Of a stretch of 64,000 nt of DNA, positions 16,123 to 64,000 are shown in pieces. Source of the DNA: Buxus sempervirens (taxonomy: Eukaryota > Streptophyta > Magnoliopsida > Buxales > Buxaceae); assembly GCA_947561395.2 (NCBI GenBank), contig OX387189.1, forward strand, positions 19,592,329-19,656,328. The letters are read 5' to 3'. The notes below the pieces were generated by a model. The model searched no databases. It was not told the origin of the DNA and worked only from the letters and a program-made list of their open reading frames with translations. Every line of letters starts with the position of its first letter. Position 1 is the stretch's first letter. The position numbers were made by a program, and so were the translations under genes.

Positions 16123-16150
16123 ATGAGTTGGACCAATTCGTCCAACTCAT
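16123..16150. promoter_or_regulatory. Perfect 10-bp hairpin upstream of TATA, LTR A
   Basis: Arms ATGAGTTGGA (16123-16132) and TCCAACTCAT (16141-16150) with an 8-nt spacer. In the LTR sense (minus) it lies about 260 bp upstream of the TATA box. A second imperfect inverted repeat (GGTAGCCAC and GTGGCTGCC) is at about 16318-16349. Confidence 0.6.
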
Positions 16151-16864
16151 TTCTCTTTGTTTATTTTTATTATTATTATTATTATTATCTTTTAATCTTA
16201 AACTTTTATTAACTTTGTTATTAAATTTTTTATTTATTTGCATAACAAACCCCATTAGGAAACTTACTTATTTACTAAAACAACCCCACAAAATTTTAAT
16301 TTATCATTTGTTACATGGTAGCCACCATGGCGTACACGTGGCTGCCATGTGGTATCCAATTTTAGTTTTGTAAAAATCCCCAAACTACCCTTTACTTCTT
16401 TTATCCATAACTTACTTGTTTGAGATCTGATTTGAGCATGGTTTGATGCATCGGAATCGTCTCAAAATTCTCTTTATTATGAACTTGTTATTTAAAAAAG
16501 ACAGGTCCACTATAAAAACCTCGATTTATGTATCCACATATATGCCAGTTTAAGATATGCTTTTTGGACAATTTTATAGTGCAAAAATGGGGTGCTGACA
16601 GTTAAATTAATCATAATAGCCAGCTAATAATATTTTTCTAGAGCAAAATACAATAAGTGATATAATATTCCTAATAACTATAGATTTTAATACATTATAT
16701 GACATAATATTACTGGTAACGAGATAGCTATACAATTGCAACCAATCCAGGGAATCGCAGTCTATATTACATATATACACATATGATTTTATGAAAAACA
16801 ACCAATCACATTCACCAACAATGTGTGCCGTATGGAATTTGTGAAACGAAAAAAGAAAAAAAAA

Positions 16865-20944: not shown

Positions 20945-21732
20945 TGTGCGCACGTCCCTCGAGGCACCGCATTTCTAGTTGGGGTATCGAAGTTGCCATT
21001 GCCTGATGGGGTGCAGGCAGACACCTGGGTACTTATTCAGGTATATTTGAATGGTCTATGTCTTTTTAGAGATCCTAGTTAAGGTCTCAGTTATGTCCGG
21101 GGAAGTATGAAGGACACCCCAGCCCACCCCGTCAATTGACAGGTCCCCCCGGGTCTCCCTGGTTCGAGTCAACTTAGTCTCACCCCTTATCCTATGCCAG
21201 CATACATATTTTTGGTCTGGGTGGGAACCACCAGAATGATGCAGGTCCCCCTTTATTTTTGTTAATTTTATCTTTTTATCCAAGATGAGGTGGGTCTGGT
21301 ATGAGCCCCGTTGAAAGGCCCATTGGTAACCATGTTAGGCTTCGGTTAAGCCCAATTCCTATTTAGGGTTATGTTGGATAACCCTTTCTGGATTAGGTTA
21401 TTTAGTTTAAAAGTTTGATTAAATGTACAAGATTTAATGGGTTCAGATTTTTAAAGTCTACTAGGCTTGGACTTGGCTCAGGATATTATCCATGTTGCCA
21501 TGTGAGGCCCATTTATTGAAACGGGCCCTGGTTTGGGCAGGTCGGATGTGGGCCCCCGTTGGAAGGCCCACAATGTCTTGGTGGGCCCAAATGGCCCAAG
21601 TCACAAAATTAGATTTTGGACTGATTCAAAGCCTATTTGGTTTAGATTAAGTAATAATGGGTTGGATCGGGTCAGGTCTTAGACCAAAGAGACGGGTTTT
21701 AAATGATTTACTGGGCTCAACCACACATATCC

Positions 21733-21835
21733 TGCGGTTACGTCGTAACCGCACACTTGGTGCGGTCCGGGCCTGACCACACATTCTATGCAGTCAAGCC
21801 CGAACCGCTTTGAGTATGCGGTTCAACTCGAATCC
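21733..21835. promoter_or_regulatory. Hairpin cluster 2 of LTR B
   Basis: The first hairpin is perfect, with arms TGCGGTTAC (21733-21741) and GTAACCGCA (21745-21753) and a 3-nt loop. Related half-sites follow (GTGCGGTCCGG, GAACCGC, TGCGGTTC). It corresponds in position to cluster 2 of the other family-1 LTRs. Confidence 0.6.
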
Positions 21836-23208
21836 CAAAAAATTGCTAAAATCTCATTAGGGGTTGGTTCGTTAGCTCCCCAAGGATGTTTGTAATTTAC
21901 TGTGAGCTCCGGATTAAACTCATAGTGATGTGTATGCTTCTTTTTTTTGGGTTAAATGATCCCTTCTTTTGAGGCTTTTCAAAATGGGGTGGATCTTTGC
22001 TTTTACATGACCAATAGAACTTTGAACAAGGGCCTTAAATGCCCTTGTTTGGTATCAAAGTGATCCTTCTTAAAGGTATCAAATGCAAAACCAAAGAGAC
22101 TTGATTCTCACTTCATCAAACAACTCACCCCATATATACATGCTTGGTTATTATAAAGAATATATGCAATAGATGAAAACTAAAAAAAAATGCATGAGAA
22201 TAACTTTGCAAATCCAGAAATAATCCAAGAAATAAATATATATTTTGGGAAACCAAGTTGAAAATCCCCTAACAACTCAAAAAGGTAGACTCGTAAGGGC
22301 AAGGAGATGTGAAATCTTTTATTGACACCTGGAAGTGAGTAAAGTAAATCAAAATTTACATGTGATATTTATCCTTAAAACAAAAATCTGTTGATAAGAA
22401 GTAAAAAAAACCTACTATATATGTGTGTGGAAAGGTGTTCCTGCATATGCATGATTATGAGTGGAACCTAACAATTATATAGCAATAATCACATATTAGG
22501 TGAAAGGAAAGAGGGAAAAGGAAATTTTTGGGATACGTTGGATGGTAAAGAGGGACATCCCCCCTCTTTTTAAATAAACAATGAATCTCCATAAGAAGTT
22601 TAGAGATAGCATATGACCTCCTCTTTTCTTTATTATTTAAGAACCCTCTCCTTTCTTCTTTATGTATGGAGATCCCCCTCCTTAGCAAGGGGATCTCATA
22701 GCATACACAAAAGACATGAAAATGGTTAGAAAAATATAACAAATAGAAAACTTAATATGACACAAAAGGAAACAAACTCAAAGGATTCGCATCTTGTTAT
22801 ATATTGAATGAAAAAAAAATTACAAGTCTTTAACTTGATGATACCTTTTATACGAGTATGTGAAGACCCTCCGATGGACGTGGACAGCACTTCGGAACCT
22901 CTTCTTGGTTCAAGAGATAGCGTTTCCTTGTAGGTGAGAACAAGAAAAGGGAAGAAGATGAGAGTTAGGAGGGCATTTTGGGTGTTGAATGGGGCTTGGG
23001 TTTAGCAAGGGAATGGTATGGGGAGCTTTTCGTAGTAGAGGGGCAAAGGGGCGTCTAGGATGAGAAGGAAATGGAGGAGGAGTGGGAGAGAATGCTCCTT
23101 GGAATGGGGGGAAGGGGAACCCCCTATTTATAGTGAAAAAAGTGACCAAATTTTAATTTTTAATTTATCCTTTTCACTTGTTACTAAATAAAACATTGAG
23201 TGACACGT

Positions 23209-23261
23209 GGGTTGTTTTTCAACCCAACTCATTTCAACGCATTCTCCATGTGGGAGAATGC
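23209..23261. promoter_or_regulatory. Hairpins upstream of TATA, LTR B
   Basis: Arms GCATTCTCC (23239-23247) and GGAGAATGC (23253-23261) with loop ATGTG are perfect. A smaller one, GGGTTG and CAACCC with loop TTTTT, is at 23209-23225. In the LTR sense they lie about 80-130 bp upstream of the TATA box. Confidence 0.6.
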
Positions 23262-23846
23262 ATTGTAACCTTCTCCCTTTTTCAATTTTATTTTTATTTA
23301 TTTTAATTGTTTTGATTTTTATGTTTTATTATTATTTAATTCATTGATTTTTCTTTTGTTTAGACGCACATGTGCTTTTGGTTTTTTTATTTTATTTTTC
23401 ATTTAATTTAAATGCCTTAATTAGATATTTTATAAAAATATTATTATTTAATTCAAGATTTTTTCCTTTTATTGCTCTTTCTTTATTCTTTGCCACGTGG
23501 GCAGATTTCACCAGAACTTTGACTACTTATAACTCTTTTATTGCGTTGGAATAGTATCGAGATGCTCTTTCTGCTAGGATAAAATTGGACAGTTGATCTG
23601 GGGTTTAGCAAAAAGTCGAATTCTACTCCCCTCCGGTTTGACCGGTCTATAACTTCTTCATTCGGACTCCGATTTGAGCGAACTTAGTGGCGTTAGAATC
23701 ATATCGGAATCCTCTATCCATTAGTAATAAGCATGGTGGCCAATTTGCACTAGATAAAAAGTCAACTTTTGACCCCTCCGGGTTTGACTTTTCAATTAGG
23801 GTTTTCATTTTCGGCATTTTTGGTACGCAAAAATGAGTTGCTGACA

Positions 23847-39115: not shown

Positions 39116-39870
39116 ATTGGTTTTACTCACTGATTTGAATGGTTTGTGTAGACACCTGATTTTTGCACCCCTAAAATGAAGAGAATAAAAAGTCAAACCT
39201 TGAGGGGGTCAAAAAGTTGACTTTTTGATCAGGTATAAATTAACCACCAAACTTTATACCATTGGAAAGAGGACTTCGATACGATTCTAACGCAACTGAG
39301 TTTGCTCAAATCGAAGTTCGGATAAAGAAGTTATGGGCTGGTCAAATATGGAAATAGAAGAAATCGGCTTTTTGCAAAACTCCAAATTAGCTGCTCAATT
39401 GGACATTAGCAGAAAGAGCACATCGACACGACTCCAACGCAACTGAGTTTGCTAGAATCGGAGTCCCGGATAAGGAGATATGAGCAAAATTGGCTCCGGG
39501 ATGCGACTTTGCACTTTTGTTAAAAAGCCCAAATTTGCTACCAAACTCTAGCTCAATAGATAGAAGATTTCAATCTGATTCTAACACCACTAAGTTTGCT
39601 GAAATCGGATATCAAATGAGAAAGTTATGAGCAGTCAAAAATCTCGGAAAATCTGCACATGTGGCAAGATTGAAGAAAGGACAATAAAAATCTAAGAATA
39701 AAATAATAATATTGTGTAAATATCTAACAATTAAATTAAATCAAAAATAAAATGGAAAATAGAAAACACATATGCGTTTTTTGACCAAAAAAAATCTTAA
39801 GAATAAAATAATAATAAAACCTAAAGAATCTAAAAATTAAAATAAATAAAAATAAAACAAAAAATAACAA

Positions 39871-40018
39871 CCACACATGGAAGGTGTGGATAAGGGTGAT
39901 GTTTTGGAAGGATAAGAATGAGAGAATTAAATTTTAGTTACCTTGTTTATGAAATTAAAATTTAGACACAAAATGTAACTAAAATTTATTTTTGGTTCAT
40001 TTTTTTAACTATAAAAGG
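39871..40018 (+). promoter_or_regulatory. TATA box and upstream hairpin, LTR C
   Basis: Arms CCACAC (39871-39876) and GTGTGG (39884-39889) with a 7-nt spacer lie about 120 bp upstream of TATA (40009-40018). It is the shortest hairpin of the set, and alone would not stand out. Confidence 0.45.
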
Positions 40019-41854
40019 GGGGCCACCCCCATTCCAAACACAACACACCCCTCCCTTCTCCCCCTTTTGCTCTCTCCCACTTCACTCACCCTCTCCATTC
40101 TCTCTTCCTCCTTGATCTCCACTCAAGAGAGGCTGGCCCCCTTAAGCCCTCTTCCTCTCCTTCCTTGACTTTCCCACGTCCAACCCCTGCCCAAACTCTG
40201 TCCCACTCAAAACCAAAACCCAAAATACCCTTGGATTGCACCATTCCCCTTCACATTTCATCCCTTTCAATTCAAGAGTGAGGAATCCCTTTTCATTCCG
40301 TTCTTGGAAATTCACCGGAGTGCGGAAGCGCTGCTGAAATTCTCGGAGAATCACGACATCACCAAATCAAAGAAGTAATAGTGTGGTAACTCTTCCAGCA
40401 ACTTCTTCTTCAACATATATGTGAATTTTCTTATTTAAACAACTTTGAACTCCTCTTATTCAACTACCTTGCTACTAACTCGTTTGCTTCACTTTTGTCG
40501 GAGTCCTCCCGTACAAATGAATGTCTCTTTATGAAAAAGGAAGAGAGTGGATCAGTAAAACAAGCAAAAGAAAGAGAATATGAGAACTAACATATTTGAT
40601 TGATTTCATTTGCTACTGCAAGAGGGATTTGACCTCTTTAAAATCTCTAATGTAACCCTATCTTATTCCCTCTTTCCTTTCTCTTGTTGCACAACTGGAA
40701 AGTGACTTAACCCAATGAAGAAGAATGGAATCTTATTCCATATCAAAGCATCGGACAAAAGGAGGATTTGAAGGCAATTGGGGGTGTGCGTACCTAATTT
40801 CGGTCGCACGACGAGGCGCATGCAAAATGATGCGTGCCTCGGGTTTGTTTGGAGTCGCCACTGCCTGATGGGGTGCAGGCAGACACCTGGGTGCCTATTT
40901 TTGTCTATTTAGGCTTGGTCTGCGGCTTGAGATTCTAAGCAAGTTCTCTGTTACGGTCCGGGGAAGTTCGTAGACACCCTGGTCCGCCCCGTCAAAAGAC
41001 GGGTCCCATAGGATTCCTTGGTTTGAGTCAACTTTGGTCTCTCACTCACCCGATTCCTATTCCAGCATTTAATTTGGTTGAGTCTGGCGGGACCGCCAAA
41101 GTGGTGTGGGTGCCTTTACTTGATTTTATCTTTCTTAGCTTAAAGTGATGTGAGTCGGATTAGGCAGGCCCCGTTGGAAGGCCTGCGGATCCCTTGGTGG
41201 GCTTGGTTAAGCCCACGTATCCCCTGGTGGGCCTCAGTCTAGCCTGGGAAGCCTTTTGGGCTTGGTTCAAATGAATTGATTTTATTTAATGGTTCGAGTT
41301 TGATTAAATTTGATTTGCATGCAAAAAATGAGTTTGGATTGCTTTGTGGGCCCGTGAGTGGGCTGTAACAGTGGGTTGTCAAGTGATTTTAGATTATCTT
41401 GGTTAACTGTGCCAAAATGGGCCAGGCCTTGGGCTTGGGGCCCTTTACTTGGGCTTGGGCTTGAAAACCCAAGGCTTCCTGAGTTAGGGTTTGGAAACCC
41501 TAAGTTGGTTCGATTTAATGGGTTTTAGCGGGCCCGATCGGCCCTACCCGCAGTCTCGACCAAACCAAGCCTAGATCTAAACATACATGCTGCCCCAGTT
41601 GGGCTTTGGTGGGCCTCCAATGGTGTGGCCCACTCATTCGGTTAAATTTATCTTGATTTATCAAAAAAAGTTTGTCGGGCTTGGTGGGCCCCATTGGAAG
41701 GCCCACCGGGAATCAATTTGGACCGGGTCGGTCCATGGCTCATCTTGGGTTTCCGGGTGACCCAGAAACCCTTCTGGTTCATCTGGATTGATCAAACAAA
41801 CCAAAAAATTAGCACAATATCACAAAATTAGCAAAAATGCAGTCTAGTAGTGTA

Positions 41855-41956
41855 GCCGGCCTGAGATGCCAGTTACACATAAGGGTCAGTGTATCCGGCA
41901 TCTTTAGCCAGCTACGAATAAGGCTCTGTTGATCCGACCTGAGTTGCCGGATCAAC
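41855..41956. promoter_or_regulatory. Hairpin cluster 2 of LTR D
   Basis: The clearest hairpin has arms GTTGATCCGAC (41928-41938) and GCCGGATCAAC (41946-41956), one mismatch, with loop CTGAGTT of 7 nt. Weaker related ones (TAGCCGGC, TATCCGGC and TAGCCAGCTA half-sites) precede it. Confidence 0.6.
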
Positions 41957-43241
41957 ATACAGAAGCCTTTTTTGGATTTTTCAAAGGGGGTTGGGTTTTT
42001 AGGCCCCTTGGGGTGTTCCAGGGATTGTGTGGGCTCCTGTGTGAGCCCACGTTGGTCCAGGTGAGAGCCACTTGGCTCTCTTCTTGATGTTTTGAAAATT
42101 AAAGGGAGGAGATGGTGGCTGGGGCTTGCCTCCTCCTCTTTTCTGGACCCACTTGATGCACAAACAAGGACTCAAGTGTCCCTGACTTGGGTTCCTTTTT
42201 CTTCTAAAAGATCCACCATTATCCTACATAAAATAGTAAGCGAAGTGGAGCATCCACAAACATGCTTCAAGTAAACAAAAACCCAATCCAGCCCCATGGA
42301 ACATGTGCAAAAAGGGGGGACTGACTTTTCATGGCCAAAACAGCAACTAAACATGAGTTATAACCCTAAGTGAACATATGCAAAAGTAAAGAAAAACAAG
42401 CAAGCTTAAAGCTATGATCCTATCCAAATGAGTAAAGGAACATATATCACCCATCCCTCCTATTATAACCATATGCACCCAACTCACACATCTAACTAAA
42501 AAGTGTCTAAAGAAGGGAATAGGGGGGATTAAATTGGGATACAATAGATGATCATGCTAAGGGGAACATGCTCCCCCACAAATAATTAAAACAAAACTCA
42601 AAATAGCAACTTAATGGGGCTAAAAATGAGATGGGCTCTCTCTTACCCTTATAGACCTCCACATTACCAAAAAAAGAGAAGAAAAGGCATGCAAATGGAC
42701 ATCTATACCAGACTTATGCTAGGGAAAAGACAATATTAGAAAACTTTTTAGAAAAATCTCATTATAATATATATGCAACACAACATGATGGGGAGTCTCA
42801 CCTTGAGGTTGGAATCCTCTTTGAGGGTGTGCTTGAGTTACTTTGTGACACCACAGTCCTGGGGCAGCACCTCCTCCTCTCCAAATGATCTCCAAGATCT
42901 CCTTCTTCTCACTTGAATGTGGTGGAGAATGGTGGTGGAGGGCTTAGGAAGCCATGAAAAGAGCTTGGGAGAGAAGAACAATGGGCTAACAAAAATGTGC
43001 TCTCCCCCTAATGCATCCCACCTCCTCCCCTTTTATAGGAGAGGTTGCTTAAGGGTTAAGAAAGACCAATTTTTAAATATTTTTATCAAAAGTGACCTTT
43101 TTATTGTTATTTCTTACTTGTGACTTATTACTTTTTACTTAATGGTTAAGAAAGACTCTTTTGTTAATATTTTTTACTTAGGGGTTAAGAAAGACTCTTT
43201 TTGTTAATATTTTTGTTTACTTAAGGGTTAAGAAAGGGGAC

Positions 43242-43270
43242 GTCCACGTGGCGCAGTTTGCCACGTGGAC
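43242..43270. promoter_or_regulatory. 11-bp hairpin with G-boxes upstream of TATA, LTR D
   Basis: Arms GTCCACGTGGC (43242-43252) and GCCACGTGGAC (43260-43270) are perfect with loop GCAGTTT. Each arm holds CACGTG, the G-box bound by plant bHLH and bZIP factors. It lies about 205 bp upstream of the TATA box in the LTR sense. Confidence 0.65.
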
Positions 43271-43904
43271 AGTTTATTTTTGACCAAGGATTGCCCATAA
43301 CTCTCTCATTTGAGCTCCGATTCTGGCAAACTCAGTTGCGTTGGAACCGGGTCGACATCCTCTATCCACTGAGCTAGAGTTTAGCAACAAATTCGAGTTT
43401 TTTAGCAGAAGCGCCGAGTCGCGTCCCGGAGCCAATTTTGCTCATATTTCCTTATCCGGGACTCCGATTCCAGCAAACTCAGTTGCGTTAGAATCGTGTT
43501 GAGATGCTCTTTCTGCTGGTATCAAATGGGGTAGCTGATATGGGGTTTAGCAGAAAGTCAATTTTTGCTTTTCTCAGATTTGACCAGTCCATAACTTCTT
43601 CATTTGGACTTCGATTTGAGCAAACTTAGTTTCATTAGAATCGTATCGGAATCCTCTTTCCAATGGTGAGAAGTATGGTGACTGATTTGCACCAGATAAA
43701 AAAGTCAACTTTTTGACTTTCTCAAGTTTGACTTTTCAATTAAAATTTCATTTTCTGCATTTTGGGAGGTGCAAAAATGAGGTGCTTACAGGGGGCATTT
43801 ACACTACTATAGAAATGTTGCAAACCTCAATGGATGTCGCTGGACCTCCCAAGAAGATAACCAGAATGATCCCCGGTGAAATCGACTCAAAAATAGCAAA
43901 TTCG

Positions 43905-44010
43905 GACGAAAACCGCATACTCAGTGCAGTCTGGCCATGACCGCACTTGATATGCGGTCTGGTTCGAACCGCAGTACATATGCGGTTCAGGTCAAATTGC
44001 ATAGTAAGTG
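43905..44010. promoter_or_regulatory. Hairpin cluster 2 of LTR C
   Basis: Two perfect hairpins: GACCGCA (43939-43945) with TGCGGTC (43953-43959), loop 7; and GAACCGCA (43966-43973) with TGCGGTTC (43981-43988), loop 7. Half-sites AACCGCA and GTGCGGTC lie on either side. Confidence 0.65.
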
Positions 44011-44864
44011 CGGTCACATTTAAAAATAGCTAAAAAATTGATTTTTTTGGGCCCGGTTGGACCAGATCCGACCCAAACCAGCCTAACCTGACCTAATAAG
44101 TTATTTGAGTTATCTTTAGCTTTTTTATGGACTGTGGGGCCTAGATGGGCCCACCAAGACCCCCTGGGCCCACCTAAGTGGCCCACCATTGACTGGCCCA
44201 CACCAGACCCACTTTCAACAAATGGGCCCAAGGCCATGGGCATATTGGCTATCGGGCCTAATCTAAGCCCACCAAGCCCTTTACATATTTAATTAGTAAA
44301 TAATATAAACCAAAAGGGTTACCCAATAACCCTGCTGGGCTCAAGTCCAACCTTGGCAATCCACGGGTCTTCCAATGGAACGCGTATCTGACACACCTAA
44401 CCTAAATAAAAGATAAAAATAAAATAAAAGGGACCCACACCTCTAGAGGGCCCCACCAGACCAAAAAGTGGCATGCTGGTCTAGGAAAGGTGAAACTGAC
44501 TCAAAAACCAGGGAGACTCGAGGGACCTGTCAAACCGACGGGGTGGGCCGGGGTGTCTTCGGACTTCCCCTAACGTAACCGAGGACTTATCTAGATCTCT
44601 AATAAGCCGCAGACTAGACTTAGACCTGGATAGGCAATCCTTGTGTCTGCTTGCACTTCTCAGGCAGTGGCGACTTCGAAAGTCCCGAGGCACGCACGAA
44701 CTCCATGTGCTCCCCGTGTGCAATCTAGATTTTTTAGGTGCGCACAGTTTGGTGTGAGTTGTGAATCGTCTAATTAGACGTTGTTCTTAGTGTGGATCCA
44801 CAGTGAGTCTAGTTCATGTGTTGGTGGTGGCTTGTTAGCCTTAATGTCCTTGTCCATCTATTGT

Positions 44865-44967
44865 GATTCATTGGGCAGTGTAGAGGTTACTCCACTTGGC
44901 CTTGATTCATCGGGCAGTGTAGAGACACTCTGCTTGACCTTGATTCATCAGGTAGTGTAGAGGTACT
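44865..44967 (+). repeat. 38-39 bp tandem repeat in LTR K, continued
   Basis: Further units of the 38905-39115 repeat, ending at GAGGTACT where LTR E inserted. Confidence 0.85.
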
Positions 44968-45567
44968 TGTAGACACCTGATTTTTGCACCCCCGAAATGA
45001 AGAAAAGGAAAAGTCAAACCTTGAGGGGGTCAAAAAATTGACTTTTTGATTCAAGTGAATTTGGCCATCAAACTTCATCTCATTGAAAAGAGCATTTCGA
45101 CACGACTTCAACGCAACTAAGTTTGCTGGAATCGGAGTCTAGATGGGAAAGTTATGAGTTGGTCAAACTTTTGGGGAGCGAAAAGTTGACTTTTTGGTCG
45201 ACCCCAATTCAGCTGTCCAAAGTAATCCCAATGGATAGGTGGTTTCGAGCTGATTCCAACGATACTAATTTTGCTGAAATCGGACACCAGATGAAGAAGT
45301 TATGGGCAGTTGAAGTTTCAAGAAAATTGTCTGTTTGGCAGAATAGCAGCAAAAAAGCAAAATGAATTAACAAAATCAATAAAAGACATTTAATAAAACA
45401 TATCTTAATATTTTAAACATTTAAATAAAAAGTGTCTTAGTATTTTAATAATATAATCATAAAGAATCTTTGATTTTTTAATAAAATATTAAGAAAATCG
45501 GATAAAAATCTTTAATTAAATCAAATTGAATAAAAGATTTCAGATCTGGCATTTAAAAAACGTGCTT

Positions 45568-45716
45568 AACCGCACTTGAAGTACGGTTTAGTCTGAACCA
45601 TGCTTCAAATATGGTTTTGATTTTCTAGAAGGTGGACGCGTGTCTTGTACGGCGACAGCTGGCAGATTTGCGCAGATTTGCACGTGTTGAATGCCAACCG
45701 CACTTAAAGTGCGGTT
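45568..45716. promoter_or_regulatory. Hairpins upstream of TATA, LTR E
   Basis: AACCGCACTT (45696-45705) and AAGTGCGGTT (45707-45716) form a perfect 10-bp palindrome around one base. AACCGCAC (45568-45575) and GTACGGTT (4581-88 of the same hundred, i.e. 45581-45588) match at seven of eight. The distance to TATA is about 180-320 bp. Confidence 0.65.
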
Positions 45717-46493
45717 TTTGATTTTTTAGTGCAAGCTGGCCCCCCTTGTCCCCTGCATGTTCCCTCTCCTTCCCTTCGACGTTTTACACGTCCACACCTT
45801 GTCGAAGTCCATCTAGCCCAGAGAAATACCCATTTTACCCCTAAAGTGCTGCTTCAGCTCTCCCTTCCCATCCTTTTCATTCTTTTTAACATATAAATCA
45901 GCGAACCCCTTTTCAACTCAATTCAAGAAATCCACCGTAGTGCCGAAGCGCTGCCGAACTCATTCGGAAGGGCAATAACACACCAAAACAAGCAATTGAT
46001 CATACTGTAAGTATTTCTATAGTTTTATATTTAACAAAAGTGAATTATAGTTATGTTAACATGTTTCAAATTCTCCCTTTCCATGCTTTATTTTACCATA
46101 TTGTTTCTAATCCGTTTGTTACATGTTGAATGTCGCGAGAATAAGGGCGGCAATTTTCGTAAAAAGGAGAAGAGTACCTTTAAGTTAAAATGGACACTTT
46201 AATTAAGCTAATTTAACTAACCCCTTTTATTTGTTACCAAAGATTGGTTCATCCCTTTTGAAGATCTATTACACCCCTGTAATTTTCCCTTTTTCCTTTC
46301 TTGAGAATGGCTGCAAGTGACTACAAAAGAGATAGGTTTTTGTGAAGAATGGAAAGACAAAGAAAAGTGGCTTTCCAAGCCAAATGGAACAAATGGAGCA
46401 ACAGGAACTCCTACAGAAGTTGCCGGAATCCCCAGGAGACTAATCAAACTGATTCAGAGCGAAATCGGAACAAAACTGCAAGTTCGGGAGACA

Positions 46494-46550
46494 ACCGCAT
46501 CTACAGAGCGGTTTGGGCAGAACCGTACAATAAGTGCGGTCAAATTAAGA
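46494..46550. promoter_or_regulatory. Hairpin cluster 2 of LTR E
   Basis: Half-sites AACCGCA, GAGCGGTT, AACCGTAC and GTGCGGTC are arranged in alternating orientation, using the same AACCGC/GCGGTT arm as cluster 1 of this LTR. Confidence 0.5.
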
Positions 46551-47279
46551 AATTGGTTTAAAATTTGATTTTTCGGACCGGATGGACTTGACCCGACCCG
46601 AACCGGCTTGAACGAATCTTTTAGATGTCTTGGGCTATTTTAAGCCCATTTGTGGACTGTGGACCTAAATAGATCCATCAAGGCACCTTGGGCCCACTTG
46701 TGGGGCCCACCTTTGACTGGCCCAAACCAGGCCCGTTTTCAACAAACGGGCCCAAGGCCATTTGACCCTTGGCTAATGGGCCAAGTCCAAGCCCAATAAG
46801 CCCTTAATATTCCTAAATAATTTAACAAATAATCAAAAAAGGGTTACCCAATACCCCTACTGGGCCCCAAGCCCAACCTTGGCAACCCATGGGTCTTCCA
46901 ACGAGACTCGTACCCGACCCAGTTCATCTAATAAAAAGATAAAATAAAATAAAAAGGGGCCCAAACCATCAGAGGGTCCCGCCAGACCAAACAAAGTGGC
47001 ATGCTGGTCTAGGAAGGGTGAAATTGACTCAAAAACCAGGGAGACCCGAGGGACCCGTTAAACCGACGGGGCGGGCCGGGGTGTCTTCGGACTTCCCTGG
47101 ACGTAATCGAGGACTTAGCTAGAACTCTGAAAAGCTGTAGACTAGACTTAGACCCGGATAGGGCAATCACCGTGTCTGCCTGCACCTCTCAGGCAGTGGC
47201 GACTCCGAAAGTCCCGAGGCACGCACTCCCACGTGCGCCCCGTGTGCGATCTAGTCCAGATTTAGGTGCGCATAGTACT

Positions 47280-52394: not shown

Positions 52395-53006
52395 TGTAAG
52401 CACCTCATTTTTGCGCCCCCGGAAGTGCCGGAATTGCGAAACCCTAGCAGAAAAGTCAAACCCTTAGGGGACAAAAGTTGACTTTTTAATCAAGTGATAA
52501 TTGGCTACCTCAATGGATAGAGAATCCCGACACGGTTCCAACGCAACTGAGTTTGCAGGAATCGGAGCTCGAATGAAGGATTTGCAGGCCGGTTAAACTT
52601 GAAGGGGAGTCGAAAGTTGACTTTCTACTAAACCCAGAATCAACTGCTAAATCCTATCCCAAAGGATAGAGGCCTTCGACACGGTTCTAATGCAACTGAG
52701 TTTGCCCAAATCGGAGTCCGGATGAGGAAGATATGAGCAGTTGAAGTTCTAGGGCAGCAGAAACCGGAAAACTGCACACGTGGCAAAAGGCTGCACACGT
52801 GGCGAGAGGCGCAAGAAAATATCTCGGGGGGCAATCTGTGAATATCCAAACATGCAAAATATCTCAGGGACTAAATCAAAAATTCGCAGGGACCAAATCT
52901 GTGAATATCCAAGTGTATCGGAGCAATCTGCGAATATCCAGGGGGCAAATCCGTAAATATCCGATTTGTATCCGTCCGTATATGTCAGATACACACTTCT
53001 TTCTTC

Positions 53007-53220
53007 ATATCCGACATATATTGCCGGATATAAAAGATTTGCCCACGAGATTCGCGCAGATTCGCAGACAGATACGTGCAGAAAATTAAAATTTTGAAAT
53101 AATTGTGTTTGTATGTCGGATACAAAGGAAGTGCAGTGTATCCGACATAATATGCCGGATACAAAGGAAGTGTAGTGTATCCGACATTAAATGCCGGATA
53201 CAAAAATTTTTCTATAAAAG
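53007..53220 (+). promoter_or_regulatory. TATA box and three upstream hairpins, LTR F
   Basis: Hairpins: ATATCCGAC/GCCGGATAT (53007-53031), TGTATCCGAC/GCCGGATACA (53137-53163) and TGTATCCGAC/GCCGGATACA (53176-53202). Each has one mismatch in the arms and a 7-nt loop (ATATATT, ATAATAT, ATTAAAT). The last ends 10 bp before TATA (53213-53220). The loops differ while the arms are kept. Confidence 0.75.
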
Positions 53221-54509
53221 GGCAACAGCAGCCCCATTTGGGGGGTTGGCTTTTCTTTTCTGTTTTCCCCCTCTTCTGCCCCTTTTCACCTGCTCCGAAA
53301 TTCCTTCCTCTTGCCCCCCTTTGGCTCCCCAAACCCTTCAAACACCACCTTCAAACACCACCTCAAGTGCTGTTCCGGTCTAAGAGGAGGTTAAGGAACA
53401 TCCTAAACCCCTTTTCAAGCCCAAAGGTGAGCTTCTTCCTGGCATTTATTTCACATATGTCAATTTTGGATGATTTGAGACATGCTCATAAGAAGTGATA
53501 TTTCTGTTATGTGTGATTGCATAGTTTCTTTTTTTCTTTCCCTCTCCTTTCTTATCACTTTAATAGTGGATACTCCCATGAGGTTGTTCGAATGAAAGAG
53601 GGAGTAAGGGCATAGTTTACAGTACCATAAGGTTGCTGTTTATATCACTGCCATCTTCTTTCCATTTGATAGGGGAACATGTCCCCCTAAAATTTTTTCT
53701 AATGTACCCCTTTATGTAACCCCCCACTTTCCTTTCTTTGGCTCTTTAAGTTGAAGTGCATGGATGAAGTTAGTATGATCTTGCTGTAAGTTACAACTGA
53801 TGTATGTTAAATTAGGCCTTTATTTTTGTATGCATATATCTTAGTTGCCGTCTTGTGCATGCCGGAATACACCCTCATTTGAAATGTGTCTTTCCTCATC
53901 TTTAGGAACATACAAATGTCTTACTTGTCTTGCTGTTTTCATATGCCTTGTCATGACTTATTATCCTCTTCTAACCACTTTTCTTACCAACATGAAATTA
54001 TCCCATTTAGCTTTATAAAAGTTCCATGATTGTATCCATGTTTCCTCCCATTAGAATAATATCCACATGCTTTGCATTTTCCATTGTTCAAATGTATTCT
54101 TACATGCATGAGAGTATTCTTACATGCATGAGTCTGTAAGTGCGATAGATCCCTGCATATGCATTTTTGATATTGGTTTGGTTCCTTAAAGTTGGTGCTT
54201 CGGATCCTTTTGTTGGGTAGTCTTCTTGTGCATATAGTGGAATGTTTATTCGTTAAATTGAAAAAGGCCAAAACAGGGACACATGGACCTTGTTTAGCCA
54301 TCAAATATGGTTCAAGTTGGAGGCAGTCACCCATCCCTTCTTCCCTTCTCTTTGTTGTGAAGCCTTCAAAAAGACCAAAAATGAGGGTTTTCCCCCCTCT
54401 TCTCTGACTACTGTGGGCCCACATAGGGGCCCACCCAACCCTGGAACATCCTAGAAGACCCAGAAACCCAAGCCCATTGGCAAAATCTGAAAATACCATT
54501 TGTTTAGTT

Positions 54510-54626
54510 GGTCCGACAACTCAGGTCGGATCAACATGGCCTTCTTTGTATCCGACCATCATGGTCGGATACAAGTAGCTTTGTTTGTAGCCGACAACTA
54601 AGGTCGGCTACCAACTAAGGTCGGCT
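54510..54626. promoter_or_regulatory. Hairpin cluster 2 of LTR F
   Basis: TCCGAC/GTCGGA (54512-54530, loop AACTCAG), TTGTATCCGACCA/TGGTCGGATACAA (54546-54574) and GTAGCCGAC/GTCGGCTAC (54587-54611, loop AACTAAG), followed by a partial duplicate. The arms are perfect. Confidence 0.75.
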
Positions 54627-55693
54627 ACACTGTTGAAATGCCTGTTTCCATATTTCATAGTCTTGTGCAATTTTTAAGCTTTATTTGATCAATCTGGATG
54701 AACCAGAAGGGTTTCCGGGTCAACCAGAGACCCAAGATGGGCCACGGACCGACTCGGTCAAATTTGATTTCCAGTGGGCCTTCCAACGGGGCCCACCAAG
54801 CCTGACAAACTTACTTTTGCTAAGTCAAGATAATCTAATTGAATGAGTGGGCCACACCATTGGAGGCCTACCAAAGCCCAACTTGGGAAGCATGATGCTT
54901 AGATTTAGGCATGGTTTGGCCGAGACCACGGGTAGGGCCTATCGGGCCCACTAAGCCCATTGAACCCAACAAAGATTAGGGCACCCAAGCCCTAACTCAG
55001 GAAGTCTTGGGCTTTCAAGCCCAAGCCCAGGCAAAGGGCCCCAAGCCCAAAGCTTGGCCCATTTTGGCACAGTTAATCAAGATAACTCAAAATACTCGGC
55101 AACCAATGGTGTGGCTCGCTCAGGGGCCCACAAAGCAATCCTGGCCCACTTTGCATGAAAATCACTGAATTTCCAACTTGAACATCAAATAAAATCAAAT
55201 TCACTTGAACCAAAGCCCAAAGGGCCTCTCAGGCTAGACTGAGGCCCACCAAGGGACACGTGGGCTTAGCCAAGCCCACCAAGGCATCCGCAGGCCTTCC
55301 AACGGGGCCTGCCCTATCAGACTCAGATCACTCTAAGCTAAGAAGATAAAATCAAGTAAAGGGACCCACACCACTTTGGCGGTCCCGCCAGACTCAATCA
55401 AATGTGCATGCTGGAATAGGAACCGGGTGAGAAACCAAATTGACTCAAACCAGGATGGGACCCGTCATCCGACGGGGTGGACTGGGGTGTCTACGGACTT
55501 CCCCAGACTGCAACCGTGACCTTACTTAGAATCTCAAGCCGCAGACCATTAGATTAAGCAAACTTAGGCACCCAAGTGTCTGCCTGCACCCCATCAGGCA
55601 GTGGCGACTCTAATTTCCCATTTTACCCATCCGGAGGCACCCGCACGATTCGCGTGCGGCCCGCCGTGTGCGATTTCCCATGCGCACAACCAT

Positions 55694-56034
55694 CTTTATC
55701 ACAATACATTCTCCTTAATTCTGTGAGGTCTCTTTCCACATCTTCGATTTCTATGTTCTCTTTTGGCAGAGGGCAACCCCAATATCTCCTCAACATCAAG
55801 AAGTGATATATTAAACCTCCTTCCACTTACTACAAGGCAACATTCATAAGGATTAAATGAAGCCAATAAGGATACAATGTCGCCCTTATAACAGTGTTTA
55901 ATCTTCATATCAAGAAGGCTTCCAAACCCAATTGCCCTAACAGCTAACGTCTGGAAATCGTTCAACCCTTCGATAATTTTGTGCAATCGTTGAGGCGTAC
56001 ATCTGTTGCAAACTTCTTTCCCACTTGTTGCCAT
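55694..56034 (-). pseudogene. PMD-like domain, proximal half with start codon
   Basis: From ATG 56032-56034 it reads MATSGKEVCNRCTPQRLHKI, LNDFQTLAVRAIGFGSLLDM, NPYECCLVVSGRRFNISLLD and VEEILGLP. After a frame change near 55790 it reads KENIEIEDVERDLTELRRMY to the LTR F border. The core LxxFQxxAVRxIGFGSLLxM and DVxxILGLP pattern is usual for N-termini of plant Ulp1 transposon proteins (plant mobile domain or DUF1985-like; the exact Pfam name is uncertain). Confidence 0.8.
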
Positions 56035-56129
56035 TTATCTACAAATAAATAGACAAATTGATAAAAAACTTTGCAATGTGAGTGTTTAAATGTGCCATCT
56101 ATAAAATCAAAATGTAATTAGAAATACTC

Positions 56130-56195
56130 CTTAGGTACCCCACAAATAAGCCTTTTGTACCCCGCAAATAAGCATTGGGTACCCACAAATAGGCC
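56130..56195 (+). repeat. GGTACC-core array, right side of the Ulp1 gene
   Basis: Units CCTTAGGTACCCCACAAATA, AGCCTTTTGTACCCCGCAAA and AAGCATTGGGTACCCACAAA, C-rich on plus, so inverted relative to the array left of the gene (32990-33310). LTR G interrupts it. Confidence 0.85.
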
Positions 56196-57237
56196 TGTGC
56201 GCGCGTGGGAAACGCGGCACGGGGTAATTCGGAGTCGCCACCGCCTGATGGGGTGCAGGCGGACACCTGGGTGCCTAACCTTGTCTATTTAGGGCTTTTG
56301 GTCTGCGGCTTTGAGATTCTAAGTTTGGTTCTCGGTTGCGGTCTGGGGAAGTCCGTAGACACCCCAGTCCACCCCGTCGGATGACGGGTCCCGTGGGTTC
56401 CCTGGTTTGAGTCAGCTCACTATTTGGCCTTCACCCGATTCCTAATCCAGCATGCGATTTTAGATTAAGTCTTTGTCGGGAACACCTGAGTTGGTGTGGG
56501 TCCCTTTAGTTGATTTTATCTTTGCTTACTTGAATTGTTTGAGTCTGATTGGGTGGGCCCCGTTGGAAGGCCCACGGTGTCCTTGGTGGGCTTGGGTAAG
56601 CCCGTGTACCCTTGGTGGGCCTCTGTCTAGCCCTAGGAGGCCCTGCGGGCTTTGGATAATGAATTGATTTTACTTAGGTTTGGATTAAGTGTTTTCTTAT
56701 GCAAAAGGTGGGCTGGATTGGTTTGTGGGCCCCTTAGGTGGGCCCACGTGGTGGCCAAGTAAGTTTAGTTTATCTTATTTAATTTTGCCAAAGCGGGCTG
56801 GTCACTGGGCTTGGGGCCCGTGATCCAGACTTTGGGCTTGAAAGCCCAGTGCTTCGAAGTTTAGGGCTTGCACCCTAACTCTGTTCGGTGAGCGGGCTTT
56901 GGCAGGCCCGACAGGCCCTAGCCCTTGGTCTCGGCCAAACCAGGCAGTTCATGCACTTATTTCACATAGCAAGGTTTGGGTGGGCCGCATTGAGTTTGGC
57001 CCAACCGGTTCAATTAATTCATTTTACTTTAACTCGTTTAATTGCATGCTTTCGGGTTCATTGGGCTTTGTGGGCCCCGTTGGAAGGCCCACGGGTGTGC
57101 CAAGTTGGACCGGCGGTCCAAGTCCCAACTTGGGTTTCCGGGTGGCCCGGAAACCCTATCGGTTTATCTGGTTTGATTCAAAGTACTCCCAAATTCGGCA
57201 AGACATCAAGAGAACACAAAAAAAGCACATTTCTGTG

Positions 57238-57385
57238 TGTATCCGGCAACTCAGGCCGGATACACTTGGTCTGCAGGTGATCCGGCCAGAGTAGCCGGAT
57301 ACTCAAGGGCCATGGGTTATCCGGCCTGAGTGACCGGACACACCCAGGCCCCAGGTGATCCGGCCTAAGTTGCCGGATCACACTG
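57238..57385. promoter_or_regulatory. Hairpin cluster 2 of LTR G
   Basis: TGTATCCGGC (57238-57247) and GCCGGATACA (57255-57264) with loop AACTCAG are perfect and identical to the first hairpin of cluster 1. Others with GATCCGGCC/AGCCGGAT, ATCCGGCC/ACCGGA and GTGATCCGGC/GCCGGATCAC follow to 57385. Confidence 0.75.
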
Positions 57386-58439
57386 AAATGGCCATTTTTG
57401 AGTCCTGCCACTGGGGATTGATTCTAGGGGGTTCCTAGGGGCTTTTGAGGTTTCGTGGGTCCCTGGGTGGGCCCACGTATGTTCAGGTTTGGGAGAAGCC
57501 ACATTTGGCTTCTCCTTCTCGGATTTTTCAGCACACATCAATGGGGAAGGAGGGGGTGATGGAGCATACTCGCATGCATACAAAATTTTAACTAAATAGT
57601 AGGAGGATTAGGGGAGGCAGACATCCACACATAAATCACAGCCATTTCGTGGGCTTGTCATGCTTCGCATCTCTCATGGCAGCAAAATCAAGGAGGAAGG
57701 ATACTAAGTAATCATGCACAGCAAAGAGAATAATAAATAAAAAAACAAGGAAAAGAGAGAATCACACATATTACCCACGAATTCTAGCAAGACTAAGAAC
57801 CAAATGCCTCATGCCTAACCCATGAAAGCTTAAAGAAGGGAAGGAAAAAGGGGATTTTTATGGGGTACATTAGATTAAAAATGGGAGAAATACTCTCCTC
57901 TCCTTAAAGCTTCCTAACAATGGACTAAACCGCCATGCATGAGCACCGAAAGGGTGCAAAAACTGAGCTCTCCTGACTCCCAAGGAGAGCTCACGTGAAC
58001 TTCTTATTGATGATGGCTTCGTGCCATGAAAAAGAAACCCAAAAGCATGCATACAACACATGAAAACCAGCCCATGCAGAACAAGGAAGATAAGAAGAAG
58101 AAAATACCGCCAAAAATCCAGATTTAATATATGATAAACACAAGACAGTGAGGAGCCTTACCTTAGGTTTTAAAACCTCTTTGGGGGTGTGTCGGCACTT
58201 CCTTTTGGCTTGGATATTTTGCTGGAACTCCTCCTCTCGTCAGTAACAGCAGCAGCTCCTCCTTGTTTTAACAAGTAAGTGGAAAGGGAGAGGAAGGCAA
58301 AGGCTTTTGGGTAGCTTTTGGGGTGAAATGGTGAGGTTATGAAGGGCAAAGGAGGCAAAGTTCTCGTGGGAAAAAGTGGGAGGGGGAAGCTCAAAGCAGC
58401 AAAGGAACAGCCAACCCCGGAAATGAGCTGCTGGTTTGC

Positions 58440-58566
58440 TATTTATAGAGAACTTAATGTATCCGGCAACTCAGGCCGGATACAGTAAGGCTTCCCCTTA
58501 TCCGGCCCTCATGGCCGGATACACTAAGGCTCCTTTGTATCCGGTCTTCAAGTCCGGATACAAAAC
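58440..58566 (-). promoter_or_regulatory. TATA box and three upstream hairpins, LTR G
   Basis: TGTATCCGGC/GCCGGATACA (58458-58484, loop AACTCAG), TATCCGGC/GCCGGATA (58499-58521, loop CCTCATG) and TGTATCCGG/CCGGATACA (about 58537-58563). They start about 10 bp upstream of TATA (58440-58449, minus sense), at the same spacing as in LTR F. Confidence 0.75.
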
Positions 58567-59254
58567 ACAATCATTTGAAAATTAAATGCTGCCGCGAATT
58601 TGTCGGGCGATCGGCGCGAATCTCGCGCGAAAATCTTCTTGTATCCGGTCCTTGAGTCCGGTCATGAAGGGGAGCCAGTGTATCCGGTTTATTTGACCGG
58701 ATACAAATCGGAAAATTACGGATTTGCCCTTCGACTTGACCGATTCGACCGATTTGACACTTTTGGATATCTACGGATCGCCCGTACGAATTTTTGATAT
58801 TTAAGATTTAGTCCCTGAGATATTTTGCTGCGTTGGCTGTCACGTGTGCAGTTCCTGCGCCACGTGTGCAGTTTCTGGCTTTGCTGCTCGGAAGCTTCGA
58901 CAGATCATATCTCCTTTATCCGAACTCCGATTTGAGCAAATTCAATTGCATTAAACTCGTATTGGAGCCCTCTATTTAATGACATAGGGCTAAACACTTG
59001 GCACGGGGTTCGAGGAAAAGTCAAATTTTGGCCTTTCCTTAAGTTTGACCGCCCGCAGAACCTTCATCTGGACTCCGATTCCTGCAAACCCAGTTGCGTT
59101 GGACTCGTGTCGGGATTCTCTATCCATTGAGCTAAAGCAAGGTGGCCAAATTTTATTTGATTAAAAGGTCAACTTTTCACTCTTCAGGATTAGACTTTTT
59201 AGCCGGGTTTTGCATTTCTGGTTTTTCTGGGAGCGCAAAAATGAGGTGCTTACA

Positions 59255-62175: not shown

Positions 62176-64000
62176 TGTGCGCATGGTTGCACGGCATGGG
62201 CGTGCCTTCTAAAGGGTAATTCGGGAAGGTTGGAGTTGCCACTGCCGGATGTGGTGTAGGCATACACCCGGGTGCCTAGGTTTTTCTATTTAGGCGGTTT
62301 GCGGCTTGAGATTCTAAGCAAGGTCTCGGTTACTGTTCGGGGAAGTCCGTAGACACCCTGGTCCGCTCCGTCGAATGACGGGTCCTATGGGTTTCCTGGT
62401 TTTGAGTCAACTTTGGTCTATCTCACCCGATTCCTAATCCAGCATGCAAATTTGGTTAAGTCTGGTGGGACCACCTGAGTGGTGTGGGTTCCTTTATTTG
62501 ATTTTATCTTGATTAATTAGGTGATCTGAGTCTGATTGGGTGGGCCCCGTTGGAAAGCCCACAGATTCTTTGATGGGCTAAGTCCAGCCCACATGCCTCT
62601 TGTTAGGCCTCGGTCTAAGCCTAGGAGGCCCTTTAGGCTTTGGTTCAATGAATTGGTTTTACTTAGGATTCAAGTTTAAAATTAAGTTGATTTTCATGCA
62701 AAGTGGGTCTGGATTGACTTTGTGGGCCCCTGGATGGGCCATACAATGGGAACCAAGTGATTTGAATTATCTTGGTTGACCTGTGCCAAAATGGGCTAGG
62801 CACAGGCTTGGGGCCCGTTACCTAGGAAATTAGGGTTTTGACCCTTCAAATACGGTTAATGGGCTTGGTGGGCCCGGTAGGCCCTGGCCCGCAGTCTCGA
62901 CCAAACCACACCTAGTCTAAGCCTGCATGCTTCATTTTGGGCTTTTAGCGGGCCTTGAATGGTGCGGCCCACTCAATTAGCTTATTTCTCTTATATACAT
63001 TCAAGGGAATCTGTCGGGCTTGGTGGGCCCTGTTGGAAAGCCCACTGTGTATCAAATTAGATCGAGTGGTCCGAGTCCCATTTTGGGTTTTCGGGTGACC
63101 CGGAAACCCTATTGGTTCATTTGGTTCAATTAGGAGAGTAAGAATATTGCACAAGACCAAAAAAACAAGAAAATGAAATTTCTGCAATGTAGCCGACCTG
63201 AGTTGTCGGCTACACACTCAAGCATATGTAGCCGGTCTGTGATGTCGGCTACACATATTAAACAGTGTAGCCGACCTCCATGGTTGGCTACAAACAAGAC
63301 TTTGCTGATCTGACCTGAGTTGTCGGATCAACTCACAGCATGTATTTTTAGGGCTTTTCAAAAGGGGGCTAGCTTTTGGGGCTCCCCAACTCACGTGATG
63401 GCAAACTAATGAAACACATAAAGTCCCTCTAAACAACAAACAAGATACATGCCTTAAGCCATGGTGAGTATGTGCATGTGCATATGCATGAACATATGTT
63501 ATATGAGTAAAATAATAACTAAGGAGGATGGGGAAATGGGAAGCGTGGTGTGAGGTTTCTTATGCATGCATATGTATGCTTCATGGAACTTATAATATGC
63601 TGCAATCAAGCTCAAAGACATGCCGAAAAGACCTGATATCATGAATGTAAAAGAAACCAACAAAAGAAAGGATGAAGGGGCTTATACAAGGGGTACATGA
63701 GAATTGAAAGAAAGGGAACAAACTGCCCCATTGAGTGAAAACCAGTAGCAAGATAATAATCTAAAAACCATTAAGAACATGTGTAAGGTGACCCTCTTCC
63801 TCCCATGAAGCCGACCACATATCTTCCCCTTTACCATGGGATTTTCTTTATGCAAAATGGAGAAGAAAAAGTAGAGAAGAGAAACATTAACATGCTAAGA
63901 AAAGAAGAGAATAAGATGCTAAAAAGGGAGTGCACTCCAACATGCTTAGAACATGCTCATTCCAACTTATGATGTACAAAATACCAATGAAAGCTTTACC
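62176..64000 (-). mobile_element. LTR family 1 (LTR I), incomplete at window end
   Basis: The plus strand begins TGTGCGCATGG with left flank CCCAC. It contains the GTCGAATGACGGGTCC block (62368-62383) and the GGTGGGCCCGGTAGGCCC region, as in LTRs B, D and G. The end with the inverted TGTAAGCACC is beyond 64000. Confidence 0.8.
63188..63330. promoter_or_regulatory. Hairpin cluster 2 of LTR I
   Basis: TGTAGCCGAC (63188-63197) and GTCGGCTACA (63205-63214) with loop CTGAGTT are perfect. TGTAGCCGG/TCGGCTACA, TGTAGCCGAC/TTGGCTACA and TGATCTGAC/GTCGGATCA follow, each with a spacer near 7 nt. Confidence 0.75.

What the first reader, a model, noticed from the sequence alone, without database searches (positions are those of the whole stretch)
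53007..58566. Co-varying hairpin clusters upstream of the TATA box in family-1 LTRs
Every complete family-1 LTR has short inverted repeats 10-320 bp upstream of its TATA box. The arm sequence differs by copy yet stays self-complementary: TGTATCCGAC/GCCGGATACA in F, TGTATCCGGC/GCCGGATACA in G, GTCCACGTGGC/GCCACGTGGAC in D, AACCGCACTT/AAGTGCGGTT in E, GCATTCTCC/GGAGAATGC in B, ATGAGTTGGA/TCCAACTCAT in A, and weakly CCACAC/GTGTGG in C. The spacer is most often 7 nt. Shared flanks with changed but paired arms mean the pairing, not the sequence, is kept. They could be dimeric protein-binding sites that shift to evade silencing or recruit new factors, or RNA/DNA structures. Palindromic repeat clusters are known in LTRs of some other plant retrotransposons (Sireviruses), but not, to my knowledge, with swapped arms.
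Basis: seen in the sequence. Interest (0 to 1): 0.85.

Follow-up and report, generated by a model that had tools for sequence, protein, structure and literature searches.

The report
Paired-site arrays in plant retrotransposon LTRs
A very abundant plant retrotransposon carries, near its promoter and again farther downstream, arrays of mirror-image DNA sites whose spacing is strictly fixed while their wording has switched repeatedly and in step, as expected if they are docking sites for a protein whose target preference keeps changing.

Summary
Both are built of mirror-image half-sites with rigid geometry: CCG-N11-CGG dyads with a 7-nt spacer, repeated every 39 bp (arms such as TGTATCCGGC) or 28 bp (AACCGCA, GCCCGTA). 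One degenerate dyad pattern has 35,415 sites in the host genome (control 77). Another has 5,826 with spacers of 1-20 nt but 44 with 8-30. Half-site type needs 19 changes on a tree of 47 LTRs. UC and DC types match in 17 of the 19 LTRs typed in both; both exceptions look like artefacts. Concerted turnover is supported. The claim that pairing itself is kept is not: beyond array-wide likeness, partner arms agree only slightly better than non-partners (coupling index 0.03-0.04, against 0.39 in arrays with an old compensatory difference at DC module 1). Linkers diverge about 63% but keep their length. Best reading: arrays for a dimeric DNA-binding protein of shifting specificity, akin to Sirevirus repeat motifs and VANC targets. 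No binding was tested.

The parts
52395..55688 (+). Solo LTR F (3294 bp), target-site duplication ACCAT/ACCAT
52967..53032 (+). F upstream array, modules 1-2 (10-7-10, 39-bp step)
53098..53202 (+). F upstream array, modules 3-5 (module 3 lacks its left arm), ending just upstream of the TATA box at about 53212
54508..54629 (+). F downstream array: modules 1-3 at a 39-bp period plus one extra right half-site
56196..59254 (-). Solo LTR G, target-site duplication GGCCT/GGCCT
58458..58705 (-). G upstream array, 5 modules in two blocks, 39-bp steps within each block
57238..57381 (-). G downstream array, 4 modules at an exact 39-bp period
40785..43790 (-). Solo LTR B (reader D), inserted in LTR C, target-site duplication CCCCC
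41851..41955 (-). B downstream array, 3 modules
43125..43270 (-). B upstream region: 39-bp tandem repeat of unrelated sequence (43125-43236) and an inverted pair of CACGTGGC boxes (43242-43270)
62176..64000 (-). Partial LTR I (3' part only; runs off the window)
63188..63331 (-). I downstream array, 4 modules, mostly TGTAGCCGAC arms
20945..23846 (-). Solo LTR A (reader B), target-site duplication GGTAT/GGTAC
21719..21823 (-). A downstream array, AACCGCA-type arms, 7-7-7-7, 28-bp period, 4 modules
39147..44746 (+). Solo LTR C, interrupted by LTR B, target-site duplication GTTTG
43911..44015 (+). C downstream array, 28-bp period, 4 modules
44968..47274 (+). Solo LTR E, target-site duplication GTACT
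45568..45716 (+). E upstream modules with AACCGCA-type arms (45568-45616 at a 28-bp step; 45696-45716)
46493..46541 (+). E downstream array, 2 modules (weak: not above shuffles)
13359..16600 (-). Solo LTR J (reader A), target-site duplication TTAAC; divergent relative
14680..15036 (-). J downstream cluster: three 41-bp pairs of 20-bp near-palindromes (AACAGCCRC-2 nt-GYGGCTGTT type)

Best explanation
Each LTR carries two cis-regulatory arrays of mirror-image half-sites, one just upstream of the TATA box and one in the part downstream of it. The half-sites sit at fixed distances: CCG-N11-CGG within a dyad, with dyads every 39 or 28 bp. A dimeric or oligomeric sequence-specific DNA-binding protein reads them, either encoded by an autonomous relative of the element or by the host. 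It activates the promoter or keeps the LTR free of silencing. In different LTR lineages the preferred half-site has changed repeatedly. When it changes, the half-sites of both arrays of that LTR lineage follow, while linkers and spacers drift freely in sequence but not in length. Shown: the arrays, the fixed geometry, the array-wide and UC-DC concordant half-site type, the repeated switching, and the weak partner-specific coupling.
For: Geometry: 18 of 19 left-to-right half-site spacings of 0-24 nt in the window LTRs are exactly 7. Sites of TGTATCCGGCN{1,20}GCCGGATACA number 5,826, and the 50 places listed all have spacer 7; N{8,30} gives 44. CCG-N11-CGG occurs 147 times against 12.1 expected in 41 LTRs chosen without regard to arms. 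In the window it occurs 29 times inside LTRs (1.82 expected; other gaps of 3-30 nt at most 8) and once outside (0.40 expected; other gaps at most 3). Constraint on half-sites and spacing: homologous linkers differ at 62.5% and spacers at 41%, but arms at 22-26% and CCG cores at 10%, with linker length fixed. Units within an array show the same (linkers 65%, arms 21-24%), so recent unit duplication does not explain most of the like arms, F upstream modules 4 and 5 being a clear exception. Gap events per 100 aligned bases are 0.69 against 2.14 (G-I) and 0 against 3.07 (A-C) in array and flank, at similar or higher substitution (0.465 against 0.335; 0.352 against 0.374). Concerted switching. Array-wide rather than partner-wise likeness.
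Against: No binding, expression or methylation data. No DNA-binding gene was tied to the family: a search for Transposase_28 (PF04195) found nothing, but its control genomes were silent too, so it says nothing. Linkers flanking a module are more complementary than shuffled ones (86 of 276 against 67.3, p 0.003; 28 of 84 against 19.7, p 0.024), and 6 of 12 arrays fold better than arm-preserving shuffles at 0.02 or below (7 of 12 at 0.04). A protein-site model predicts neither. The downstream array lies in the presumed transcribed leader, an unusual place for activator sites. In C versus E the array is not poorer in gaps (2.04 against 1.28 per 100), though that is one gap of exactly two units. 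UC-DC concordance within the 39-bp lineage is slight (6.67 against 6.43, p 0.027).
Confidence: 0.5

Rival explanations
1. The arrays are RNA (or extruded DNA) hairpins. In the genomic RNA, the downstream array in the 5' leader and the upstream array in the 3' U3 fold, and serve packaging, translation or small-RNA production; pairing is what is selected.
For: The 9 stretches folded had z-scores from -1.3 to -11.4, 8 of 9 with 0 of 200 shuffles as stable. Extra complementarity of spacers and linkers. L_i-R_(i+2) identity is 0.929 in 16 comparisons of the 28-bp group, above the local 0.83. Compensatory changes at DC module 1. In maize, small RNAs map to Sirevirus palindromes (PMC10760457 passages).
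Against: Partner-specific coupling is nearly absent outside module 1. Hairpins do not need 12- or 7-nt linkers of fixed length, yet these are fixed. No Rfam family reached its cut-off in the window.
Confidence: 0.2
2. No present function: the like arms come from mutation, i.e. template switching between inverted repeats, which homogenises arms and inverts spacers, plus modular recombination among co-packaged RNAs that spreads array types.
For: Spacer inversion at a homologous module: G DC module 4 CTGAGTT against I AACTCAG. Identical 27-mers in the two G arrays with different linkers. In the 39-bp group neighbouring spacers are more alike inverted (0.617) than direct (0.468). Template switching does this in yeast (PMC8604942 passages) and can maintain hairpins (PMC8794818 abstract). 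U3 modules turn over in Tnt1 (PMC1838419 abstract).
Against: It does not by itself predict fixed spacing with freely drifting linkers, fewer indels than in flanks, or the same 7-nt spacer in groups with different arms. Within LTRs, CCG-N11-CGG exceeds every other CCG-to-CGG gap of 0-30 nt (147 against at most 44).
Confidence: 0.2
3. The half-sites are ordinary host stress-factor sites (G-box, DRE or GCC-like, consensus recalled) gained in tandem, as in U3 enhancers of other plant elements; switching tracks different host factors.
For: CACGTGGC boxes sit in the upstream region of several copies. Sirevirus repeat motifs mainly recovered stress-related sites in PLACE (PMC2829016 section 9).
Against: I recall no plant factor that reads 10-7-10 mirrored sites every 39 bp (no search was made). 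The same type tends to sit in two arrays about 1 kb or more apart.
Confidence: 0.1

Closest known systems
Sirevirus repeated motifs (RM boxes), Ty1/copia; PMC2829016 (passages and section 9 seen)
   Same: Palindromic boxes, mostly with a CGG-CCG core, many copies per LTR, clustered upstream of the TATA box, sequence differing from element to element, and in ENV-bearing elements a second cluster before ENV. The Citrus box AATCCGGCTWRCCGGATT is close to the arms here.
   Different: Here the second array is inside the LTR, downstream of the TATA box. Dyads have a fixed 7-nt spacer and a fixed 39- or 28-bp period. Types switch repeatedly within one family of one genome. The one complete element examined lacks the Sirevirus AT/TG attachment site.
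VANC-target motif arrays of VANDAL DNA transposons in Arabidopsis; PMC5735166 passages, PMC10398659 abstract
   Same: Dense arrays of a short motif in non-coding parts of a transposon; motif types differ between related elements and change together; proposed co-evolution with a binding protein.
   Different: DNA transposon; motifs in one orientation and formed by tandem repeats; the protein is known and binding was shown. Here sites alternate in orientation, linkers are mostly not shared between units, and no protein is known.
Retand (Ty3/gypsy) elements; PMC11963269 passages
   Same: Large internal region with tandem repeats, and antisense ORFs for a putative DNA-binding TRP28 protein, a possible kind of partner protein; tandem repeats were seen inside the one element sampled here.
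   Different: Retand LTRs there are 315-1,194 bp, while the complete LTRs here are about 2.3-3.3 kb; TRP28 was not found, inconclusively.
Tnt1 U3 modules; PMC1838419 abstract
   Same: Regulatory U3 region diversifies while another part of the element is held.
   Different: That abstract describes no mirrored arrays with fixed geometry.

Membership tests
Sirevirus RM boxes | Palindromic repeated boxes with CGG-CCG core | tested here: met
Sirevirus RM boxes | Cluster shortly upstream of the LTR TATA box | tested here: met
   clear for F and G; E has no TATA match; J, A and B marginal; C not
Sirevirus RM boxes | Element is a Ty1/copia Sirevirus with AT/TG attachment site after the polypurine tract | tested here: not met
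   one complete element only...AAAGAGGGGCAGC then TGTAAGCACC (L085); superfamily itself not settled by a domain match
Sirevirus RM boxes | Further boxes before an ENV gene | not tested
   internal DNA was read only in four short pieces of one element
VANC target arrays | Short motif in dense arrays in non-coding DNA, type shared within an element | tested here: met
VANC target arrays | Motifs arrayed in the same orientation within tandem repeats | tested here: not met
   half-sites alternate in orientation; linkers mostly not shared between units
VANC target arrays | VANC-type protein binds and demethylates | not testable with these tools
   no binding or methylation data
Structured RNA element | Partner-specific compensatory change in stems | tested here: inconclusive
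   present at DC module 1, almost absent elsewhere
Retand lineage | LTR of 315-1,194 bp | tested here: not met
   complete window LTRs are about 2.3-3.3 kb
Retand lineage | Antisense ORF with TRP28 domain (PF04195) | tested here: inconclusive
   0 matches, but the control genomes were also silent

The most novel reading that the evidence does not exclude
A retrotransposon recognition code: a family-encoded dimeric DNA-binding protein of fast-evolving specificity recognises the LTR half-sites of its own sublineage in both arrays. Each specificity change rewrites the half-sites of both, so sublineages in one genome become mutually insulated for activation or anti-silencing. One degenerate pattern of the 28-bp type alone has 35,415 sites, so these would be among the commonest protein sites in the genome.
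Probability: 0.22. Interest if true: 0.85.

Novelty: new variant of a known kind. Interest (0 to 1): 0.62.

Why it matters
Palindromic clusters in plant LTRs have been known since the Sirevirus work, yet what reads them and why their sequence differs between elements is, as far as I know, open. Here one genome holds tens of thousands of modules in several sequence types with one fixed dyad geometry and repeated, concerted switches. That makes the question testable: the geometry predicts a dimer, the types predict distinct specificities, and natural LTR copies with switched types supply matched probes. If a protein is found, this would be a retrotransposon counterpart of VANC-motif co-evolution. 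If none is found, it would be a striking case of template-switch-driven homogenisation.

Tried and rejected
Arm swap at one homologous place upstream of TATA in all copies: rejected, because B's hairpin is at the G-box pair and J, A and C have single unrelated hairpins without array structure. Pure tandem duplication of 39-bp units: rejected as the sole cause, because linkers differ about 65% between units of one array. CpG decay as the cause of the position-9 change: judged unlikely, because the CpG next to it is kept in most arms. Partner covariation in the 28-bp group: not significant (p 0.19; p 0.37). Relatives outside the host genome: pattern scans of viral contigs gave 0, 0 and 1 contig and of bacterial genomes 7 contigs; a BLAST found nothing beyond module-sized or shorter matches, taken as chance. 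Rfam and tRNA scans of the window gave nothing, and Pfam on six window ORFs nothing above a cut-off. The gag-like pieces of a complete element had no Pfam hit above a cut-off (best E 0.056, HTH_32), and one of them no homologue at E 0.001. The DC windows were chosen after seeing the modules, so their p-values are biased; even so E's DC was not above shuffles there. A first UC-DC test with looser bounds gave p 0.41 within the 39-bp lineage. Genome count of matched TGTAGCCGRC modules: not completed.
Full report
What is there. The window is DNA of a 676.5-Mb genome (247 contigs; window = G000:C11:19592329-19656328), judging by size and transposons a plant (inference; no name was given). Seven complete and two partial copies of one LTR family were found: starts TGTARRCACCTBATTTTTGC or close to it, ends ...GTGCGCACA or close to it. 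All seven complete copies are solo LTRs with 5-bp target-site duplications. LTR B is nested in LTR C. The exact 3' motif GGGGTGTCTNCGGACTTCCC occurs 6,839 times in the genome (control 0), so the family is very large. Four same-orientation neighbours, which I take for LTR pairs of complete elements, differ by 1.1-1.3% (three pairs) and 7.2% (one) over about 2.2 kb. One such element has TGGCGACTCTGCTGGGGACC three bases after its LTR, which I recall as the primer-binding type of Tat/Ogre Ty3/gypsy elements; no search confirmed this (none of the 8 papers listed holds the string). Its internal pieces hold gag-like frames (likeness recalled) without a Pfam match above cut-off, and tandem repeats.

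The arrays. Each of the eight copies that reach that far also has a second cluster, DC, roughly 0.8-1.3 kb downstream of TATA where a TATA match exists; in E it is only two modules and not above shuffles. In copies B, F, G and I the modules are 10-nt arm, 7-nt spacer, 10-nt arm, 12-nt linker: steps of exactly 39 bp within each block. In A, C and E they are 7-7-7-7: 28 bp. In both groups CCG and CGG are 11 nt apart. J has 20-bp near-palindromes in 41-bp pairs. Of 19 left-to-right spacings of 0-24 nt between half-sites picked by sequence alone, 18 are 7.

Genome-wide geometry. TGTATCCGGCN{1,20}GCCGGATACA has 5,826 sites and N{8,30} has 44; the 50 places listed for the first all have spacer 7. 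RMCCGYA-N7-TRCGGKY has 35,415 sites, control 77. Six more, all with the CTTCGG form of the motif, came from a smaller request. After dropping 5 with the same 100-bp key (46 to 41; a few near-copies such as L059 and L061 remain), CCG-N11-CGG occurs 147 times against 12.1 expected; the next highest gap has 44. Twenty F-like LTRs, 7 of which overlap the loci, show modules mostly on 39-bp steps. New arm types appeared: GCCCGTA, GACCGTA, GGCGCTCAC, and a 13-nt GCTCGCGCCGAGC dyad with a 7-nt spacer.

Is the pairing kept? At DC module 1, aligned in seven LTRs with a mostly shared ACTCA spacer, pairs change on both sides (T-A to A-T; G-C or A-T to C-G): covariation score 0.448 against 0.198 (0 of 500 shuffles), and 55 paired against 41.3 under permutation. 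The stricter counts are weaker: pairs changed on both sides 37 of 500 as high, further pair types 25 of 500. For 23 modules of the 39-bp group (two positions without a left arm dropped), arms match 196 of 230 against 180.9 when partners are shuffled within arrays (p 0.003) and 184.4 among homologous modules (p 0.0008); the pair-counting tool gives 0.316 against 0.150 (0 of 500), but 49 and 46 of 500 for the two stricter counts. In the larger set (110 arrays, 279 modules, chosen on one arm) the coupling is 0.11 overall, 0.39 in arrays with a module-1 type, 0.03 in those without (fraction 0.008), and 0.038 after dropping such modules (0.0003). In the 28-bp group there is none (395 against 393.4; also p 0.19). 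Among 50 listed genome modules, 26 have like arms against 14.6 for random half-sites (42 distinct: 19 against 11.0), which mixes lineages. So likeness is mainly array-wide, not partner-wise. Mismatched modules exist: 767 at position 5, many of the listed ones alike in spacer and so probably copies of one module.

What else is constrained. Homologous linkers differ at 135 of 216 positions, spacers 52 of 126, arms 46 and 40 of 180, CCG cores 11 of 108 (the comparisons are not independent). Linker length stays 12. Units of one array differ by 65% in linkers but 21-24% in arms; F upstream modules 4 and 5 are recent duplicates. Gap events are rarer in arrays than flanks in 8 of 9 pairs, and several of those in arrays are whole or part units; C-E goes the other way. 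Against a pure protein-site reading, neighbouring linkers are more complementary than shuffled ones (86 of 276 against 67.3; 28 of 84 against 19.7), and 6 of 12 arrays fold better than arm-preserving shuffles at 0.02 or below. A spacer inversion at a homologous module (G against I, F and B, DC module 4) is a known mark of template switching (PMC8604942 passages).

Concerted switching. On a tree of 47 LTRs built from the 3' part (41 sampled plus 6 window copies; A lacked the motif and J was not put in), the DC half-site type needs 19 changes; the least possible is 5, the shuffled mean 28.9, 0 of 200 as low. Sister rows with good support differ in type, for example L066 and L081, and L037 and window E. 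Of 19 LTRs typed in both arrays, 17 have the same type in UC and DC; the 17 include the near-copies L059 and L061, and 28 of 47 rows could not be typed in both. Of the two others, L079 is a typing artefact (GTCCGCA counted as the other group), and L062 has an LTR start on the opposite strand between the two, so its upstream dyads probably belong to another, inverted LTR. By identity, same-LTR UC-DC half-sites score 6.61 against 5.24 of 9 (17 LTRs, 0 of 20,000), within the N lineage p 0.0026 (8), within T p 0.027 (9). A first version with looser bounds gave p 0.41 within T and 0.003 within N; the later bounds leave out DNA beyond the LTR. Shared descent and recombination of UC-DC blocks could add to this.

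Interpretation. Fixed spacing with free linkers, array-wide rather than partner-wise likeness, and joint switching in two separate arrays point to a trans factor reading half-sites in dimers. RNA folding and template switching remain live rivals and may act as well.

Novelty. In searches of open-licence papers I saw no title or abstract start that reports such arrays in a Ty3/gypsy LTR or UC-DC concordance; subscription papers are mostly not held, and the 2016 Sirevirus palindrome paper was not held and is known to me only through PMC10760457 passages and recall. I file it as a new variant of the Sirevirus-type palindromic LTR arrays, not as a member of that family.

Noticed in passing
window 54774-54796, 55290-55312 (F) and homologues: Hairpin with loop TTCCAACGG and paired but changed arms (GTGGGCC/GGCCCAC and GCAGGCC/GGCCTGC) downstream of the DC array; a permutation over 44 loop-like matches gave 140 paired against 91.
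   Followed up: partly
window 55597-55609 (F) and other LTR 3' parts; L083:24-43: TGGCGACTC motif about 80 bp inside the LTR 3' end resembles the sequence found right after the LTR of a complete element; the LTR boundary may have shifted.
   Followed up: no
window 52767-52806, 43242-43270: CACGTGGC (G-box/ABRE-like, recalled) pairs in the upstream part of several LTRs, direct in F and inverted in B.
   Followed up: no
L059, L060, L061 (motifs at C1:8867224, 8928251, 8989278): Three almost identical LTR stretches exactly 61,027 bp apart: a large tandem duplication or an assembly repeat.
   Followed up: no
window 32508-33341: An imperfect palindrome of about 834 bp (self-complementary at 79%).
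   Followed up: no
window 38922-39107 and 44864-44964: 38-39-bp tandem repeat just upstream of both LTR C and LTR E.
   Followed up: no
window 43125-43236; J upstream of TATA: Copies lacking the usual upstream dyads have other short-period tandem repeats there (39 bp in B; about 37-38 bp, purine-rich, in J, read by eye).
   Followed up: partly
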